Virus record (IMG/VR): IMGVR_UViG_3300028423_000812
Span: 1 to 36,828 of that record
Direction: 5' to 3' (one strand)
Origin: a virus
Length of the DNA stretch: 36,828 nucleotides
Shown: positions 5,922 through 35,205 of the stretch, piece by piece
Layout of the letters: the number at the start of each line of letters is the position of its first letter
Position numbering within the stretch: position 1 is the first letter of the stretch
Notes under the pieces: model-generated
What the model was told of the DNA's origin: nothing
Seen by the model: the letters and a program-made list of their open reading frames with translations, nothing else
The model's database searches: none
Position numbers and translations under genes: made by a program

Positions 5922-6193
5922 TGGAATCTTTATTTAAAGACTTACTAAAATATAAATTAAAAAACCTTTACTCTGGTGCAAAATCCAGAAAGGATAATAG
6001 GCTAAATACTGGATTTGACTATTCAAGTAGTTTAATGCAGAATAACTTGGCCAGGCATATTTTACGTAACCAAACCTTAATTGATTTTGTTTCATTTATT
6101 AATGACTATTTAAGTCAACTAATAAATGCAGTTAAGAATTTACAACAGTGGAAAAATTACACTGTAAAAAAGGATGATAATAACGTTAGATAA
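5921..6193 (+). CDS. Small baseplate-cluster protein of unknown function
   Basis: 90 residues, basic, predicted mostly helical (LLKYKLKNLYSGAKSRK near the start; a hydrophobic helix FVSFINDYLSQLINAVKNL near 57-75). Both ends overlap neighbours by one base (TAATG at 5919-5923 and TAATG at 6191-6195), so it is almost certainly co-translated with the gp6-like and gp7-like proteins. That placement suggests a small subunit or assembly factor of the baseplate wedge. I see no recognised family. Confidence 0.7.
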   Translation: MESLFKDLLKYKLKNLYSGAKSRKDNRLNTGFDYSSSLMQNNLARHILRNQTLIDFVSFINDYLSQLINAVKNLQQWKNYTVKKDDNNVR

Positions 6194-8928
6194 TGTATAA
6201 TAACCTTAAAATATTTAGAGGCACTGACTATAATCTAAATGCCACACAAGATTCAAATGGAGTATGGGACGCATCTGTCTATTTAGATGAAGTTTCTACT
6301 GGCCTTTATGAGTCAGTCAATATCTTTATTCTTGAAGAGGTTGTTTCAAATAGTAACACATACCTAAATAAACCCATTTCAGAATCTCAAAATTCAACAC
6401 AATTTGAATTTGAATGGGCAATTAATGCATACGAATCTGAAGATATTTTAATGTATGGCGCCAAGCTTGAGAATGGCATTATTAAAATTAATGAAAAGAA
6501 AACACAGTCAATTGATATACTTGACAACTCAACTTCAATTGGAGTTATTGATGACTTAAATGAAGTTGCTAGTGTTGATAACGAAGCAATTCAGATAAAC
6601 GTTGCACTAAGCTCTCAGGTTGAAGGTAGACATCAGAGAACACTTCTGGTTTACTCTAACGATGGCGTTGATAAAACACTAGTCGCTAGAATACTTATCT
6701 ATGGTGAAGTCGAGGGTGAAGATGAGAGACTACGTATACTATTACAAAACTTTGGTGCAACTCTAGAAGTTGAAGATTTTATCCTATTTAAGGAGCATGA
6801 TATTACAGAAATGGCGCCAGACTATATTTTGTTAAATCAAAAGAGAAGAGAGCTACTTTTAGAACTTTCAAATATTAAGCCGTTTATTGGCACATACAAA
6901 GCAGTTTTAAATGCTATTGATTTCTTTGGCTATAATAATTTAACGCTAAAGGAATATTGGTTGAATATAAACACAGGTAGCAATTCATTCGGTAAATTGC
7001 GTGCAATACCTGTTCCAAACTCAAGTAAATATGGAGAGGCAATACGTAAAAACACTCAAGTTGAGGTACCTTCAAGCAATCTTAAAAAGACAAGTCGATT
7101 TAGCCTAGTTTATAAGATTAATGTACCCAATGGCGAAGTTGACCAATGGGACATACCTAAGGTAGATGAGGTATTTGATTTTACACCTGAAGAAGTTTTA
7201 ATAAAGTTATATGGTTTAAAAAAGAAGCTACATAAAGAATACTTGCCAATGAGCGCAAGGATTGTTGATATTACAGGTGAGGGTGATTTCTTTGCACAAA
7301 AGAATCAAAACATTTGGAACAATCAAAATCCAATTACATTTGTTACTGAAGGGATTGATATTAAATATGAACAATTTCCATTGAATAGAAAACTCTTTAT
7401 TGAGGATATATCTTTGGTACTAAAAAAGGTTTATGATCCAGATGATACAACCGGAACAGGATATGTCGATACTCAAGCAATTTTAAATACAGAATTTAAG
7501 GATTACGATACATTAAGTTCACAGCAACTTAAAGATTTAAGAGAAGCTATAACCACATTTTATCAGACATATCATGATGCACCATTAGATACATTTAATA
7601 GAAGTATTGACAATAGTACGCAAGTTCATGTTGGCTGTCCAATTATTCTTGATGGAGAAAAGACATTTGATACAACATGGGACTCTGCTAAATTTACATG
7701 GTTAGACGCAATTGACCAACAAGTTACATGGGATAGTTGGTGGAAACGTTGGGTATATGAGATTGAATGGATTATTTATGGGCCTAATGGCTGGCAACAT
7801 TCATTTAAAGGGCCAATTGATGACTATTTACAGTTTCCAATTTTCTTACCATATGAAGGTAAATATGATGTTGAAATGAGAACATATGACCTATTTGGAC
7901 ATAGATCATATGATAAAAAATCAGCAATGATTAATGTTAACCTAAAGGAAATTGAGTTATATGGTTTCTATAAGCAAATTGGCAGTAACGGTTGGTCAGA
8001 TAGAGAAGATGTAACATGGAACGAAGGTGGTGGAGTATGGGAATTACCATTTCAAAATGAAACTCCAATCCAAGAAATTCCAGCAAGTTGGTACCTTGGA
8101 CTAGATCGTTCTAATTATGTACATGCTGAACAGGATGGTTTGAACTTCTCAACCGTTTCAAGATACACTGACATTTTTTCTGAAAGTGGTTATAGTGAGA
8201 CTTCAGGTCCTTATACCTGGGACAATTCAGACTTTAGCTGGAATTGGACTAGCGAAATATGGTGGGAAGGTACTAGAATCGGATCAGATATTGCAGCTTC
8301 GTTTCTAATACAGGACATTCAAAATGGTTCTGAACTAACTATTAATCATATTGATCCGGTGACAAACGAATTAGTAAGTGGTTCAATTATAATTCAAGGA
8401 ACAACTCCAACCGGGCCAACCGATGTTTTAAACTGGCAAGGAATTGCAAATGAGCTTAATAATTCAACTGATCCAATTATATCTAAATTTGTGTATAACT
8501 TGGTAGTTAAAGAGTTAAATACGCCACCTGCAGATACAGTGTTGTACATAATGGCGGTTGGTAAAAACTATTCACGATCTTATGATTTTGAATCAATATC
8601 GATTACAAATGGAGAGGTAAATGGAGAGGTTCATCAAAGAACATACAATCCAACGTATGATGATACTGAGATTTATACATCATGGAGAAGTGTTAATAGA
8701 TCAACACATGTGACGTTTTGTGCAGAGTACTCAAAGTTCCCTGGTATGAAATTAAAACAGTGGAAGATTACAAATAATACGAACCCAGATAAAAGTGATA
8801 TATATTATGGTGATATAGTATTAACTTATCTTTTTAAATATCCTGGAGATTACACAATCTCATTGGATGTTGAAGATTCAAATGGAAATACTAAATCTGT
8901 ACATAGAAACATGTTAAAAGTAAACTAA
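6193..8928 (+). CDS. Large baseplate wedge protein, possibly gp7-like, with PKD-like domains
   Basis: 911 residues, against 1032 for T4 gp7. A helical core at about 170-255 (RLRILLQNFGATLEVEDFIL, then RRELLLELSNIKPFIGTYKA and DFFGYNNLTLKEYWLNI) resembles the region of gp7-type proteins that links wedge subunits. Later come two beta-sandwich segments with the PKD-like pattern of G-x-Y-D/T-V/I strands: PYEGKYDVEMRTYDLFGH at about 554-571 and YPGDYTISLDVEDSNGN near the C-terminus. Such Ig-like folds are common on phage surface proteins. The gene order 25-6-small-this gene matches the wedge gene order of T4-like phages. The gp7 equivalence is inferred from order, size and weak similarity; the structural role is more certain. 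Confidence 0.6.
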   Translation: MYNNLKIFRGTDYNLNATQDSNGVWDASVYLDEVSTGLYESVNIFILEEVVSNSNTYLNKPISESQNSTQFEFEWAINAYESEDILMYGAKLENGIIKINEKKTQSIDILDNSTSIGVIDDLNEVASVDNEAIQINVALSSQVEGRHQRTLLVYSNDGVDKTLVARILIYGEVEGEDERLRILLQNFGATLEVEDFILFKEHDITEMAPDYILLNQKRRELLLELSNIKPFIGTYKAVLNAIDFFGYNNLTLKEYWLNINTGSNSFGKLRAIPVPNSSKYGEAIRKNTQVEVPSSNLKKTSRFSLVYKINVPNGEVDQWDIPKVDEVFDFTPEEVLIKLYGLKKKLHKEYLPMSARIVDITGEGDFFAQKNQNIWNNQNPITFVTEGIDIKYEQFPLNRKLFIEDISLVLKKVYDPDDTTGTGYVDTQAILNTEFKDYDTLSSQQLKDLREAITTFYQTYHDAPLDTFNRSIDNSTQVHVGCPIILDGEKTFDTTWDSAKFTWLDAIDQQVTWDSWWKRWVYEIEWIIYGPNGWQHSFKGPIDDYLQFPIFLPYEGKYDVEMRTYDLFGHRSYDKKSAMINVNLKEIELYGFYKQIGSNGWSDREDVTWNEGGGVWELPFQNETPIQEIPASWYLGLDRSNYVHAEQDGLNFSTVSRYTDIFSESGYSETSGPYTWDNSDFSWNWTSEIWWEGTRIGSDIAASFLIQDIQNGSELTINHIDPVTNELVSGSIIIQGTTPTGPTDVLNWQGIANELNNSTDPIISKFVYNLVVKELNTPPADTVLYIMAVGKNYSRSYDFESISITNGEVNGEVHQRTYNPTYDDTEIYTSWRSVNRSTHVTFCAEYSKFPGMKLKQWKITNNTNPDKSDIYYGDIVLTYLFKYPGDYTISLDVEDSNGNTKSVHRNMLKVN

Positions 8929-32274: not shown

Positions 32275-33258
32275 ATGGAGCTCAGTTTAACCGAAAACAA
32301 ACAATTGCTAAGAATTGATGACGCAACGTCTCTTGAACTTGAGCAATTAAATATTTCGCTAACAAAAAGAATTGACTCTTGGAGATTTAATCCATTAGTT
32401 AAAAGAGGAGTGTGGGATGGTTACATTTCATACGTAAAGGATGATAAATGGATCCCAGCGGGTCTTTGGAAAGAGGTTGTCGATATCTGTAAAGAGTATC
32501 GGTTTGAACTTAAAATCAATGGAGTTTCAGAACTTTTTGATAAGGACATAAGCGCGGAGTCATTTGAAAAATGGGCATTGGATTTTTTCGAACAATCTGA
32601 GATTACACCGCGTGACTATCAAATCGATGCAGCCTACAATATATTAAAATTTAGAAAATGTCTATCTGAACTTGCAACATCAGCAGGTAAGACTTTAATT
32701 TCATTTCTAACAGTTGCATACTTACTTGAGAAAAAGAAAGCAGAACGTATTTTATTTATTGTACCAAACGTTTCTCTTGTAATCCAGGCTAGTGAGGATT
32801 TCGCAGACTATAATTATAGAAATCAAGTCAATATTAAAATACAGCAAATTTATTCTGGTCAAAAAATTAGAGCAGGTAGAAATGTTGTTATTGGAACATA
32901 TCAATCACTTGTGAAAAAGAAAGCTGAATATTTTGATCAATTTGATGTTGTGACGGTAGATGAATGTTTACACCCAGATACTTTGATTACAATGTCAGAC
33001 GGTTCTAAAAAAAGAATATGTGAGGTAAAAGAAGGTGATTGGGTTAAAACTACTAATGATAATACATTACAAATAGAAGATCGACAGGTTGATTTTGTTT
33101 ATAAAAATTTATCACAAGGAAATCAAATGTTTGAAATTGAAATGGAAGATGGTTCAATTATTAAAATAACAGGTAATCATAAAGTTAAACTTTCAAATGG
33201 TATTTATAAAAGAGTAGATGAATTAACAGATAATGATGATATATTAAGTTTTAATTAA
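32275..33258 (+). CDS. uvsW: UvsW helicase N-terminal half fused to a split N-intein
   Basis: 327 residues. Residues 1-230 are the first half of an SF2 recombination helicase like T4 UvsW: a small N-terminal domain with WRFNPLVKRGVWDGYI (36-51), RDYQ (113-116), Walker A ATSAGKT (134-140), PNVSLVIQ (164-171), IGTYQSL (206-212) and the first part of motif II, VTVDE (226-230). The helicase then stops and a 97-residue N-intein begins at Cys231, ending at the TAA at 33256-33258. T4 UvsW drives branch migration and unwinds R-loops to switch origin use. Alone this product lacks motifs III-VI and should be inactive. It needs the product of 34270-35205 for trans-splicing, which would restore the DECH motif. 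Confidence 0.88.
   Translation: MELSLTENKQLLRIDDATSLELEQLNISLTKRIDSWRFNPLVKRGVWDGYISYVKDDKWIPAGLWKEVVDICKEYRFELKINGVSELFDKDISAESFEKWALDFFEQSEITPRDYQIDAAYNILKFRKCLSELATSAGKTLISFLTVAYLLEKKKAERILFIVPNVSLVIQASEDFADYNYRNQVNIKIQQIYSGQKIRAGRNVVIGTYQSLVKKKAEYFDQFDVVTVDECLHPDTLITMSDGSKKRICEVKEGDWVKTTNDNTLQIEDRQVDFVYKNLSQGNQMFEIEMEDGSIIKITGNHKVKLSNGIYKRVDELTDNDDILSFN
32965..33255 (+). other. Split N-intein (IntN, 97 residues)
   Basis: Starts with Cys1 directly after the DE of the helicase motif II. Block A is CLHPDTLITMSDGSKK; the following block has VKEGDWVKTTNDN. Block B is ITGNHKV, with the conserved T-x-x-H (T69, H72). The segment FEIEMEDGSIIKITGNH matches the strand before the block B His in other inteins. 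It ends without linker, endonuclease or C-terminal blocks F/G, and these last occur at 34270. Length and layout are close to naturally split inteins of the gp41-1 kind. Confidence 0.9.
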
Positions 33259-33317
33259 AATTGATTAATTTTTATGTGTTTAATAAATATATAAAATAAA
33301 GACTATGTTTATTAAAT

Positions 33318-34280
33318 ATGAAATGTAAAAATAATAATTGCAATAATATATTAAAACCTAAACAAAAAAGATTTTGTAGTCAAACATGTCATTATGATTG
33401 GAAAAGAAATCAACCTAGTAAAAATAAAAATAATAGAGATAAAAAAATAGATGAAATAAGATATATCGAATCTTTAAAAGATAAAGATGAAATCTATAAA
33501 TTTATTTCGGACAATATTTTTAAATTTAATACTATTACCAATTTAAGTGAATCTGAAAAAATTACTAAAATGATAAATGAATATCATTTTAATATAGATA
33601 ATAATGTGGCATCTTGGAAAGATTTATACGATTACCTTAAAGGTCCTATAAAATGTGCAAATATAAAATGTGTGAACGAATCTAAATTTGATACATTCAC
33701 ACATGGATATTATAAATTTTGTTCTGATGAATGTTTACATAAATGGAGGTCATATAATATGGAAGGTGATAAAAATAACTTTCATAAAGTATCTGCAGAT
33801 GTTAGAAAAAGAATAGGCGTTGAAAATGGTAAAAGAATAAAAAAGATGATAACTGAAGGTACATTCACACCTAATATAACAAATTCATGGGCTAGAAGTA
33901 GATGTAATATTAATCTCAATGGAAAGAATATTAAATTAAGATCGTCATGGGATGCATATTTTCAATTATTAAATCCATCATTCAAATATGAAAAATTAAG
34001 AATTCCTTACATGTGGAATAATGATTGGCATAATTATATAGTTGACTTTATAGATGATGTAAATAAATGTATATATGAAATCAAACCAAAGGGTGAACAA
34101 AACAAGGGTTTAATAAAAGCAAAACGAGAGGCAGGAATGCAGTGGGCTATAAATAATGGATATAAATATATTGAAATTACTGAAGATTGGTTTAAAATAA
34201 ATCACAATGAATCAATATTAAAAGGTCAACCTGAAGAAAAAAGATTAAAAAAATTACTTAAACAATTCCATGAAGATTAA
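33318..34280 (+). CDS. Free-standing homing endonuclease, Vsr/EDxHD-like, with two zinc fingers
   Basis: 320 residues, lying between the two intein-helicase halves. Two four-Cys fingers are visible: C3, C8, C20, C24 (RFCSQTCHYDWKR) and C113, C118, C135, C139 (KFCSDECLHKWRS). A basic helix region follows (FHKVSADVRKRIGVENGKRI, about 155-174). The C-terminal nuclease domain has RSSWDAYFQLLNP (208-220), E225 in YEKLRIPY, D243 in YIVDF and E254-x-K256 in YEIKPKG, consistent with the PD-(D/E)xK/Vsr-like fold. Such genes sit inside fractured, split-intein genes and spread the cassette by cutting intein-free alleles. The stop overlaps the C-half start by 11 nt. Hand-counted rows at 33421, 33541 and 33961 hold 15-22% G+C, against 37% at row 35041 in the helicase, which suggests a separate origin. 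The 59-nt gap before it is A/T-rich; a weak promoter is possible. Confidence 0.8.
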   Translation: MKCKNNNCNNILKPKQKRFCSQTCHYDWKRNQPSKNKNNRDKKIDEIRYIESLKDKDEIYKFISDNIFKFNTITNLSESEKITKMINEYHFNIDNNVASWKDLYDYLKGPIKCANIKCVNESKFDTFTHGYYKFCSDECLHKWRSYNMEGDKNNFHKVSADVRKRIGVENGKRIKKMITEGTFTPNITNSWARSRCNINLNGKNIKLRSSWDAYFQLLNPSFKYEKLRIPYMWNNDWHNYIVDFIDDVNKCIYEIKPKGEQNKGLIKAKREAGMQWAINNGYKYIEITEDWFKINHNESILKGQPEEKRLKKLLKQFHED

Positions 34281-34386
34281 AAAAATTAATAAAATAAACT
34301 ACAGTGGTGATGTTTATAATCTCAGAATAAAATCAGAAGATGGCTTAAATCACAACTACTTTGCAAGTGATTTGAATGTATCTAAT
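34270..34386 (+). other. Split C-intein (IntC, 39 residues)
   Basis: Begins MKIKKINKINYSGDVYNLRI (block F-like strand: YSGDVYNL) and ends NHNYFASDLNVSN followed by Cys+1 (block G). The last residue is Asn as expected. The one before it is Ser instead of His, as in the cyanobacterial DnaE C-intein (IASN-C). The extein +1 nucleophile is Cys. The length is typical of native split C-inteins (35-40 residues). Confidence 0.9.
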
Positions 34387-35205
34387 TGCCATAAAGCAAA
34401 ATCACAATCAATTAAGACTATTCTATCAAAATGTAAAAATGCTGAATATAGATATGGTTTATCCGGTACAATACCAAAGGCAGGTACACTTGATCGACTA
34501 ACTCTAATGGCATATACTGGTCCTTTAATTACAGAAGTAAGTGCCAACTTTTTACAGCAACAAGGACATATTGCAAATTGTAGGGTTAAAGTAATTGAAA
34601 TGGACTATGCAACTGAAGGCGCCAAGAACGCGTTTAAGGAAATGGCGTTTAATAAATATGAAAACAAAGACGTCTTTAAATTTGAACAAAATTACATTAT
34701 TAATTCAGAAGGTCGCCTTAACTTTATTTGTAACATTATTTCCAGAGTACGTGGTAATTCCCTTGTACTTTTCCATCGTATTGAACATGGTAAAAAGATA
34801 TTTGAAAAGCTCAGACAGGATAGTGATAAAACGGTATATTACGTAGACGGTGGTACCGATAAAGATATTAGAGAAGAATATAAAAAGAAAATGGAAGATG
34901 GCGAAGAGGTTGTAATTGTCGCCTCATATGGTACGTTTTCAACAGGGATTTCAATTAAAAAGATTCACAATATTTTCTTTACTGAATCATTTAAAAGTGA
35001 GGTTATTATTAGACAGTCAATTGGTCGAGGATTAAGACAACATCACTCAAAGGATACTGTTACTATCATTGATTTTGTTGACGATATTAGCTCACCTGAA
35101 TGGGATAATTATCTAATGAGACATGCAAAGGCACGTCAAAAAATATACAAAGAACAGAAGTTCAAATATGACATTAAAAAAGTTAAGTTTGAAGGAGATA
35201 TATAA
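34270..35205 (+). CDS. uvsW: Split C-intein fused to UvsW helicase C-terminal half
   Basis: 311 residues. Residues 1-39 are the C-intein; Cys40 is the first residue of the helicase part. Residues 40-311 complete the SF2 helicase: CHKAKSQ (end of motif II DECH), motif III SGT (66-68), FHRIEHGKKIF (168-178), ASYGTFSTGI (218-227) and motif VI IIRQSIGRGLR (246-256). The last three match T4 UvsW closely (FKHVSHGKAIF, ASYGVFSTGI, LQTIGRVLR). Joining 230 + 272 residues gives 502, compared with 503 in T4 UvsW. The ATG lies inside the end of the endonuclease gene (ATGAAGATTAA), so translation may be coupled to it. Confidence 0.88.
   Translation: MKIKKINKINYSGDVYNLRIKSEDGLNHNYFASDLNVSNCHKAKSQSIKTILSKCKNAEYRYGLSGTIPKAGTLDRLTLMAYTGPLITEVSANFLQQQGHIANCRVKVIEMDYATEGAKNAFKEMAFNKYENKDVFKFEQNYIINSEGRLNFICNIISRVRGNSLVLFHRIEHGKKIFEKLRQDSDKTVYYVDGGTDKDIREEYKKKMEDGEEVVIVASYGTFSTGISIKKIHNIFFTESFKSEVIIRQSIGRGLRQHHSKDTVTIIDFVDDISSPEWDNYLMRHAKARQKIYKEQKFKYDIKKVKFEGDI

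What the first reader, a model, noticed from the sequence alone, without database searches (positions are those of the whole stretch)
32965..34386. Small split intein (97+39 residues) with Ser in place of the usual penultimate His
The C-intein ends VSN-C and the total is only 136 residues, with no endonuclease domain. The Ser before the terminal Asn is also found in cyanobacterial DnaE inteins that splice fast. With Cys at both splice points this looks like an active intein with a defined junction DE^C...N^CH.
Basis: partly seen in the sequence, partly recalled or inferred. Interest (0 to 1): 0.7.

Follow-up and report, generated by a model that had tools for sequence, protein, structure and literature searches.

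The report
Split intein in phage UvsW helicase
A phage DNA helicase gene is cut in two inside its catalytic motif by a mobile self-splicing protein element with its own DNA-cutting gene in the gap, and related phages show the same element with that gene replaced, deleted or the two halves fused back together.

Summary
The window's UvsW-type helicase gene is broken at helicase motif II (DE^C...N^CH) by a 97 + 39 residue split intein (32965-33255; 34270-34386). A contiguous relative of the intein (L109, about 70% identical in the N part) is predicted as a confident Hint fold (pLDDT 93; Z 19-21 to Ssp DnaB, NrdJ-1, gp41-1 and Npu DnaE inteins). All splice residues are kept in 41 distinct same-site inteins. 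The penultimate Ser is the rule there (34 Ser, 5 Ala, 2 His). The cassette is mobile: the window's nearest uvsW relatives (93%) are intein-free and read DETH, while a carrier with only 70% identical exteins has a 90% identical intein. Trans-splicing itself is inferred. The window locus is a new member of the known 'fractured gene' arrangement; the cargo and re-fused forms are the novel part.

The parts
32275..32964 (+). N-extein of UvsW-type SF2 helicase (helicase domain 1, ends ...VTVDE in motif II)
   Evidence: PF04851 ResIII 3.9e-20, PF21241 UvsW_N 1.6e-6; phrog_16259; 93% identical to intein-free L011
32965..33255 (+). N-intein, 97 aa (Cys1; block B TGNH)
   Evidence: TIGR01445 5.6e-9 above cut-off, PF01079 4.2e-9; alignments A1, A4
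33256..33258 (+). stop codon TAA of the N-half
   Evidence: sequence
33318..34280 (+). free-standing homing-endonuclease-like gene, 320 aa: Cys-rich N-terminus, NUMOD3-like region, TnsA/Vsr-like nuclease domain
   Evidence: phrog_15427 'endonuclease' 1.4e-22; invariant E225, D243, E254xK256; model pLDDT 87, Z 9.7 to TnsA 1t0f, 6.1 to Vsr, 5.7 to I-Bth0305I; relative L134 matches PF08722 TnsA-like_N 9e-8
34270..34386 (+). C-intein, 39 aa, ATG overlaps the endonuclease stop by 11 nt; ends VSN
   Evidence: sequence; alignment A2; overlap pattern repeated in relatives
34387..35205 (+). C-extein of UvsW (starts Cys+1-His; helicase domain 2, stop included)
   Evidence: PF00271 Helicase_C 8.2e-8, phrog_9690 1.4e-73

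Best explanation
The locus is a fractured gene. The UvsW helicase is made as two polypeptides, each fused to one piece of a class 1 split intein (N-half 32275-33258, C-half 34270-35205). The intein pieces associate and fold into one Hint domain. Cys1 (assisted by TGNH) forms the thioester, Cys+1 takes over the N-extein, the terminal Asn cyclises, and the exteins are ligated to restore motif II as ...VDE-CHKAK..., giving an intact helicase. The gene between the halves encodes a TnsA/Vsr-like endonuclease that cuts intein-free uvsW alleles, so that recombination copies the cassette into them together with the +1 codon. Shown: anatomy, conserved catalytic residues, Hint fold predicted for a contiguous relative, purifying selection, mobility by extein/intein incongruence. 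Inferred: the splicing reaction, cleavage by the endonuclease and its target.
For: Intein and helicase family hits. Hint model of contiguous relative L109, pLDDT 93, pTM 0.87; Z 21.2 to Ssp DnaB, 19.6 to NrdJ-1, 19.0 to Npu DnaE, 18.9 to gp41-1. Cys1, TGNH, Asn and Cys+1 in 41 of 41 distinct same-site inteins. dN/dS 0.06 (N-int), 0.02 (C-int), 0.21 (endonuclease) between window and L103. Mobility: window exteins sit inside an intein-free clade (97*, 98*), nearest L011 at 93%, yet its intein is sister to that of L103 (99/94*; intein 90% vs extein 70%). Synonymous divergence window-L103 is lower in the cassette (pS 0.49-0.58) than in the exteins (0.70-0.78). GC is 24-25% in the cassette, 32-34% in the exteins. 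Intein-free relatives of this clade read DETH in 68 of 70 loci while every carrier reads DE^CH. Same-site split intein plus endonuclease-like ORF in cultured phages S16, STP4-a and PM2 and in Lak phages.
Against: No splicing or cleavage was measured. The fold was predicted on a relative, not on the window's two fragments together. Block F position 4 is Asn throughout the family, where Asp is the most common residue (PMC4031507). The endonuclease has no solved relative by sequence, and the TnsA/Vsr match is by fold at modest score. The +1 Thr/Cys association rests on only 5 independent pairs (p 0.0625).
Confidence: 0.9

Rival explanations
1. The two halves do not splice but assemble non-covalently into a working two-subunit helicase, as reported for split NrdA of phage Aeh1, and the intein pieces are relics.
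For: Such genes-in-pieces exist in T4-like phages (PMC2988022).
Against: All splice residues and the Hint fold are kept under strong purifying selection. Contiguous versions keep the same residues. The break lies between DE and CH of motif II, so an unspliced helicase would have its catalytic motif interrupted by intein sequence on both sides.
Confidence: 0.05
2. The intein is decaying and uvsW is inactive or dispensable in this phage.
For: Helicase genes can be lost; in relative L100 the C-extein is interrupted a second time with a frame change.
Against: Low dN/dS in both intein parts and exteins; all ORFs are open; the structure recurs in many phages.
Confidence: 0.03
3. The 320-aa ORF is a passenger gene and not the homing endonuclease; mobility comes from ordinary recombination.
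For: The same site is occupied without it: it is absent in cargo, tiny-gap and contiguous forms. No nuclease assay.
Against: Nuclease fold with invariant E, D, ExK; related ORFs lie in the gap of 29 of 41 distinct carriers, in UvsW and in an XPD/DinG-like helicase alike; its relatives also lie beside phage terminase genes, annotated as endonucleases.
Confidence: 0.1

Closest known systems
Fractured genes with split inteins and a free-standing (often Vsr-like) endonuclease gene in the gap (Dassa et al. 2009, doi 10.1093/nar/gkp095; known to me from memory and citations, the paper is not held)
   Same: Conserved enzyme gene broken by a split intein, endonuclease gene between the halves, phage setting
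   Different: Here in UvsW motif II; nuclease domain nearer to TnsA than to Vsr by fold. I could not check whether UvsW is among the enzymes they list
Salmonella phage S16 and STP4-a, Proteus phage PM2 UvsW
   Same: Same DE^C...N^CH site, split intein, endonuclease-like ORF in the gap
   Different: N-intein about 41-44% identical, penultimate His, shorter C-intein; annotated only as two DNA helicase genes and a hypothetical protein
Prevotella phage Lak-B uvsW
   Same: Same site, same arrangement, C-intein about 67% identical
   Different: Exteins about 29-37% identical; records carry no annotation
gp41-1, NrdJ-1, Npu DnaE split inteins
   Same: Hint fold (Z about 19), naturally split
   Different: Other insertion genes; about 21-26% identity; penultimate Ser is shared with DnaE only (gp41-1 and NrdJ-1 have His, from memory)

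Membership tests
Class 1 intein (Hint) | Cys1/Ser1, block B TxxH, terminal Asn, Cys/Ser/Thr +1 | tested here: met
   C1, TGNH, terminal Asn, C+1 in the window and in 41 of 41 distinct same-site inteins
Class 1 intein (Hint) | Hint fold | tested here: met
   Contiguous relative L109, pLDDT 93, Z 21.2 to 1mi8; window fragments themselves not folded together
Class 1 intein (Hint) | Protein splicing activity | not testable with these tools
   needs an experiment
Naturally split intein | N- and C-parts in separate reading frames, break between blocks B and F | tested here: met
   Stop at 33256-33258, start at 34270
Fractured gene arrangement | Free-standing endonuclease gene between the halves | tested here: met
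   ORF 33318-34280, nuclease fold
Fractured gene arrangement | Endonuclease cleaves intein-free alleles (homing) | not testable with these tools
   indirect only: incongruent trees and empty sites
UvsW helicase | UvsW N-terminal domain, ResIII and Helicase_C domains | tested here: met
TnsA-like PD-(D/E)XK nuclease | Fold and E...D...ExK catalytic pattern | tested here: met
   Z 9.7 over 126 residues to 1t0f; invariant E225, D243, E254xK256; relative L134 above the PF08722 cut-off. The window ORF itself gave no PF08722 hit
EDxHD / Vsr-like homing endonucleases (I-Bth0305I) | Vsr-like fold and EDxHD motif | tested here: inconclusive
   Fold match weaker (Z 5.7-6.1); the EDxHD motif was not aligned residue by residue

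The most novel reading that the evidence does not exclude
One DE^CH-specific intein family cycles through every state at a single site: endonuclease-bearing split, split with the endonuclease replaced by other phage genes (up to a 4.3-kb block with a 693-aa fibre-like protein inside a helicase gene), split with a nearly empty gap, and re-fused contiguous mini-intein. A split intein thus acts as a tolerated docking site for phage genes, and gene breaking is reversible. It has also jumped between two helicase families (UvsW and an XPD/DinG-like one) through the shared motif II.
Probability: 0.55. Interest if true: 0.72.

Novelty: new member of a known kind. Interest (0 to 1): 0.52.

Why it matters
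It gives a family of about 40 distinct inteins at one catalytic site, in phages that include lab-culturable ones, with most evolutionary states still visible. This makes the questions of how genes become split, whether splitting reverses, and what a gap in an essential gene can hold directly testable. It also offers new split inteins with Cys+1 and Ser penultimate for protein ligation work.

Tried and rejected
RNA intron: no Rfam match in the window at gathering score. Close window-like endonuclease copies elsewhere: a scan with the endonuclease sequence found only the L103/L104 contigs. Co-conversion tract: no sharp change of DNA identity near the insertion. First mixed alignment of N- and C-fragments misaligned and was dropped (A3). 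Fibre-like cargo elsewhere in nine intein-free relatives' records and in the window: none found, but records are fragments. Bacterial genomes: only three distant matches to the N-intein. Literature: no paper found joins a UvsW split intein or DECH with split inteins; Dassa 2009 and Carvajal-Vallejos 2012 are not held.

Full report
Observation. The reading frame at 32275-33258 is a UvsW-type helicase domain 1 (ResIII 3.9e-20, UvsW_N 1.6e-6). It runs without a break into an intein N-terminal region (TIGR01445 5.6e-9, Hint 4.2e-9) and stops after 97 intein residues. The frame at 34270-35205 begins with 39 residues ending VSN and continues CHKAK into helicase domain 2. PHROGs already holds two families that are such halves (phrog_16259 and phrog_9690, matched over intein and extein alike).

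The missing piece. Between the halves lies a 320-aa ORF (33318-34280) that the finding does not mention. It matches phrog_15427 'endonuclease' (1.4e-22). Across 22 relatives the invariant residues include E225, D243 and E254xK256. Its predicted structure (pLDDT 87) matches TnsA best (Z 9.7, 126 residues, rmsd 2.6), then Vsr (6.1) and the homing endonuclease I-Bth0305I (5.7). A relative's ORF passes the PF08722 TnsA-like cut-off (L134), and the S16 one gives sub-threshold NUMOD3 and TnsA-like matches. The stop of this ORF overlaps the ATG of the C-intein by 11 nt here, and by 4-50 nt in all but three of the relatives with such an ORF, which suggests translational coupling of the C-half to the endonuclease.

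Fold. A natural contiguous relative (L109, 139 aa, about 70% identical in the N part) was folded with 19 other rows: pLDDT 93, pTM 0.87. Among the best solved matches are Ssp DnaB (Z 21.2), NrdJ-1 (19.6), Npu DnaE (19.0) and gp41-1 (18.9).

Relatives. A scan with the N-intein alignment gave 66 loci in viral contigs. Together with the window, Lak, S16 and PM2, 41 distinct inteins at the same site all have DE before Cys1, TGNH, terminal Asn and Cys-His after it; the penultimate residue is Ser in 34, Ala in 5, His in 2. Caution: one of the two search patterns contained TGNH, and I kept only loci at the DE^C site, so those counts are partly by construction; Asn and Cys+1 are not. Block F position 4 is Asn throughout.

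Mobility. In the extein tree the window sits inside an intein-free clade with L011 at 93% (97*, 98*), and L103 and the L107 group sit among intein-free rows elsewhere. In the intein tree the window is sister to L103 (99/94*). Window and L103 share 90% of intein but 70% of extein residues. Intein dN/dS is 0.02-0.06. Intein-free relatives of this clade read DETH in 68 of 70 loci, carriers DECH. So the +1 Cys appears to travel with the cassette, though only five independent pairs exist (p 0.0625). The cassette is poorer in G+C (24-25%) than the exteins (32-34%).

Other states at the same site. Besides the endonuclease form (29 of 41): four cargo loci in two lineages (L105; L107/L108/L122) have no endonuclease and instead 3-6 ORFs, among them (except in L107) a 693-aa protein with fibre-like matches (phrog_7809, 2e-11), over 1.5-4.3 kb. 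The 693-aa protein is 85% identical between lineages whose uvsW exteins are 56% identical. Five inteins have small gaps of 42-346 nt (L125, L126, L132, L137, L148). Three distinct ones are contiguous (L109/L110, L154, L167); in L109 and L154 a Met stands where the C-intein start would be, and three changes to the contiguous state are needed on either tree, as expected of re-fusion after splitting. The direction is inferred, since the tree root is not known. Five carriers (L121, L125, L129, L133, L134) have a different helicase as extein; L125 matches Helicase_C_2 and weakly HBB, as in XPD/DinG-like enzymes. Their inteins form one group (97/92*), so the intein seems to have crossed between helicase families at the same motif.

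Mechanism, shown and inferred. Shown: anatomy, conserved chemistry, predicted fold of a close relative, selection, mobility. Inferred: that the halves splice in trans by the class 1 route (Cys1 thioester, transfer to Cys+1, Asn cyclisation; PMC4031507), that the product is active UvsW, and that the ORF in the gap is the homing endonuclease for this site.

Comparison. This is what Dassa et al. 2009 called a fractured gene (cited in PMC7090010; the paper itself is not held, so the description is from memory). I could not check whether UvsW is in their list. GenBank records of S16, STP4-a and PM2 label the halves simply as DNA helicases and the middle ORF as hypothetical. The window locus is a new member of that known kind. 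The cargo-bearing and re-fused forms are not part of the arrangement as I remember it described, and are the part most worth a specialist's time.

Noticed in passing
L097 (reverse strand), L099 (reverse strand), L105:6346-10681, L098:2916-4371: Split-intein halves of UvsW separated by 1.5-4.3 kb of non-endonuclease genes, including a 693-aa fibre-like protein (nearly all lost in L098).
   Followed up: partly
L109:6028-6444, L154:6016-6417, L167:3220-3624: Contiguous mini-inteins at the same DE^CH site; in L109 and L154 a Met remains where the C-intein start would be, suggesting re-fusion of a split gene.
   Followed up: partly
L125, L129, L133, L134, L121: The same intein family at the same motif II in an XPD/DinG-like helicase instead of UvsW.
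   Followed up: partly
L100:11100-12420: The C-extein of uvsW in this carrier is interrupted a second time by an HNH-like ORF, with about 50 non-extein residues on the left and a frame change at the right edge.
   Followed up: partly
L148:4177-6327: The N-half holds a second, LAGLIDADG-bearing contiguous intein at Walker A (GAGK^C), upstream of the split intein at motif II.
   Followed up: no
L139, L140, L147, L159: Distantly related split inteins at a K.DG^C...VHN^S site, looking like a nucleic acid ligase active site, without this endonuclease type.
   Followed up: no
L032, L034: Intein-free uvsW alleles that read DECH within a clade of DETH; possibly a footprint of intein loss, or a naturally permissive site.
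   Followed up: no
L100:3678-4394 and 5960-6685: Two further endonuclease-like genes with NUMOD3 motifs (the second also GIY-YIG, just below cut-off) beside gp32-like and primase genes.
   Followed up: no
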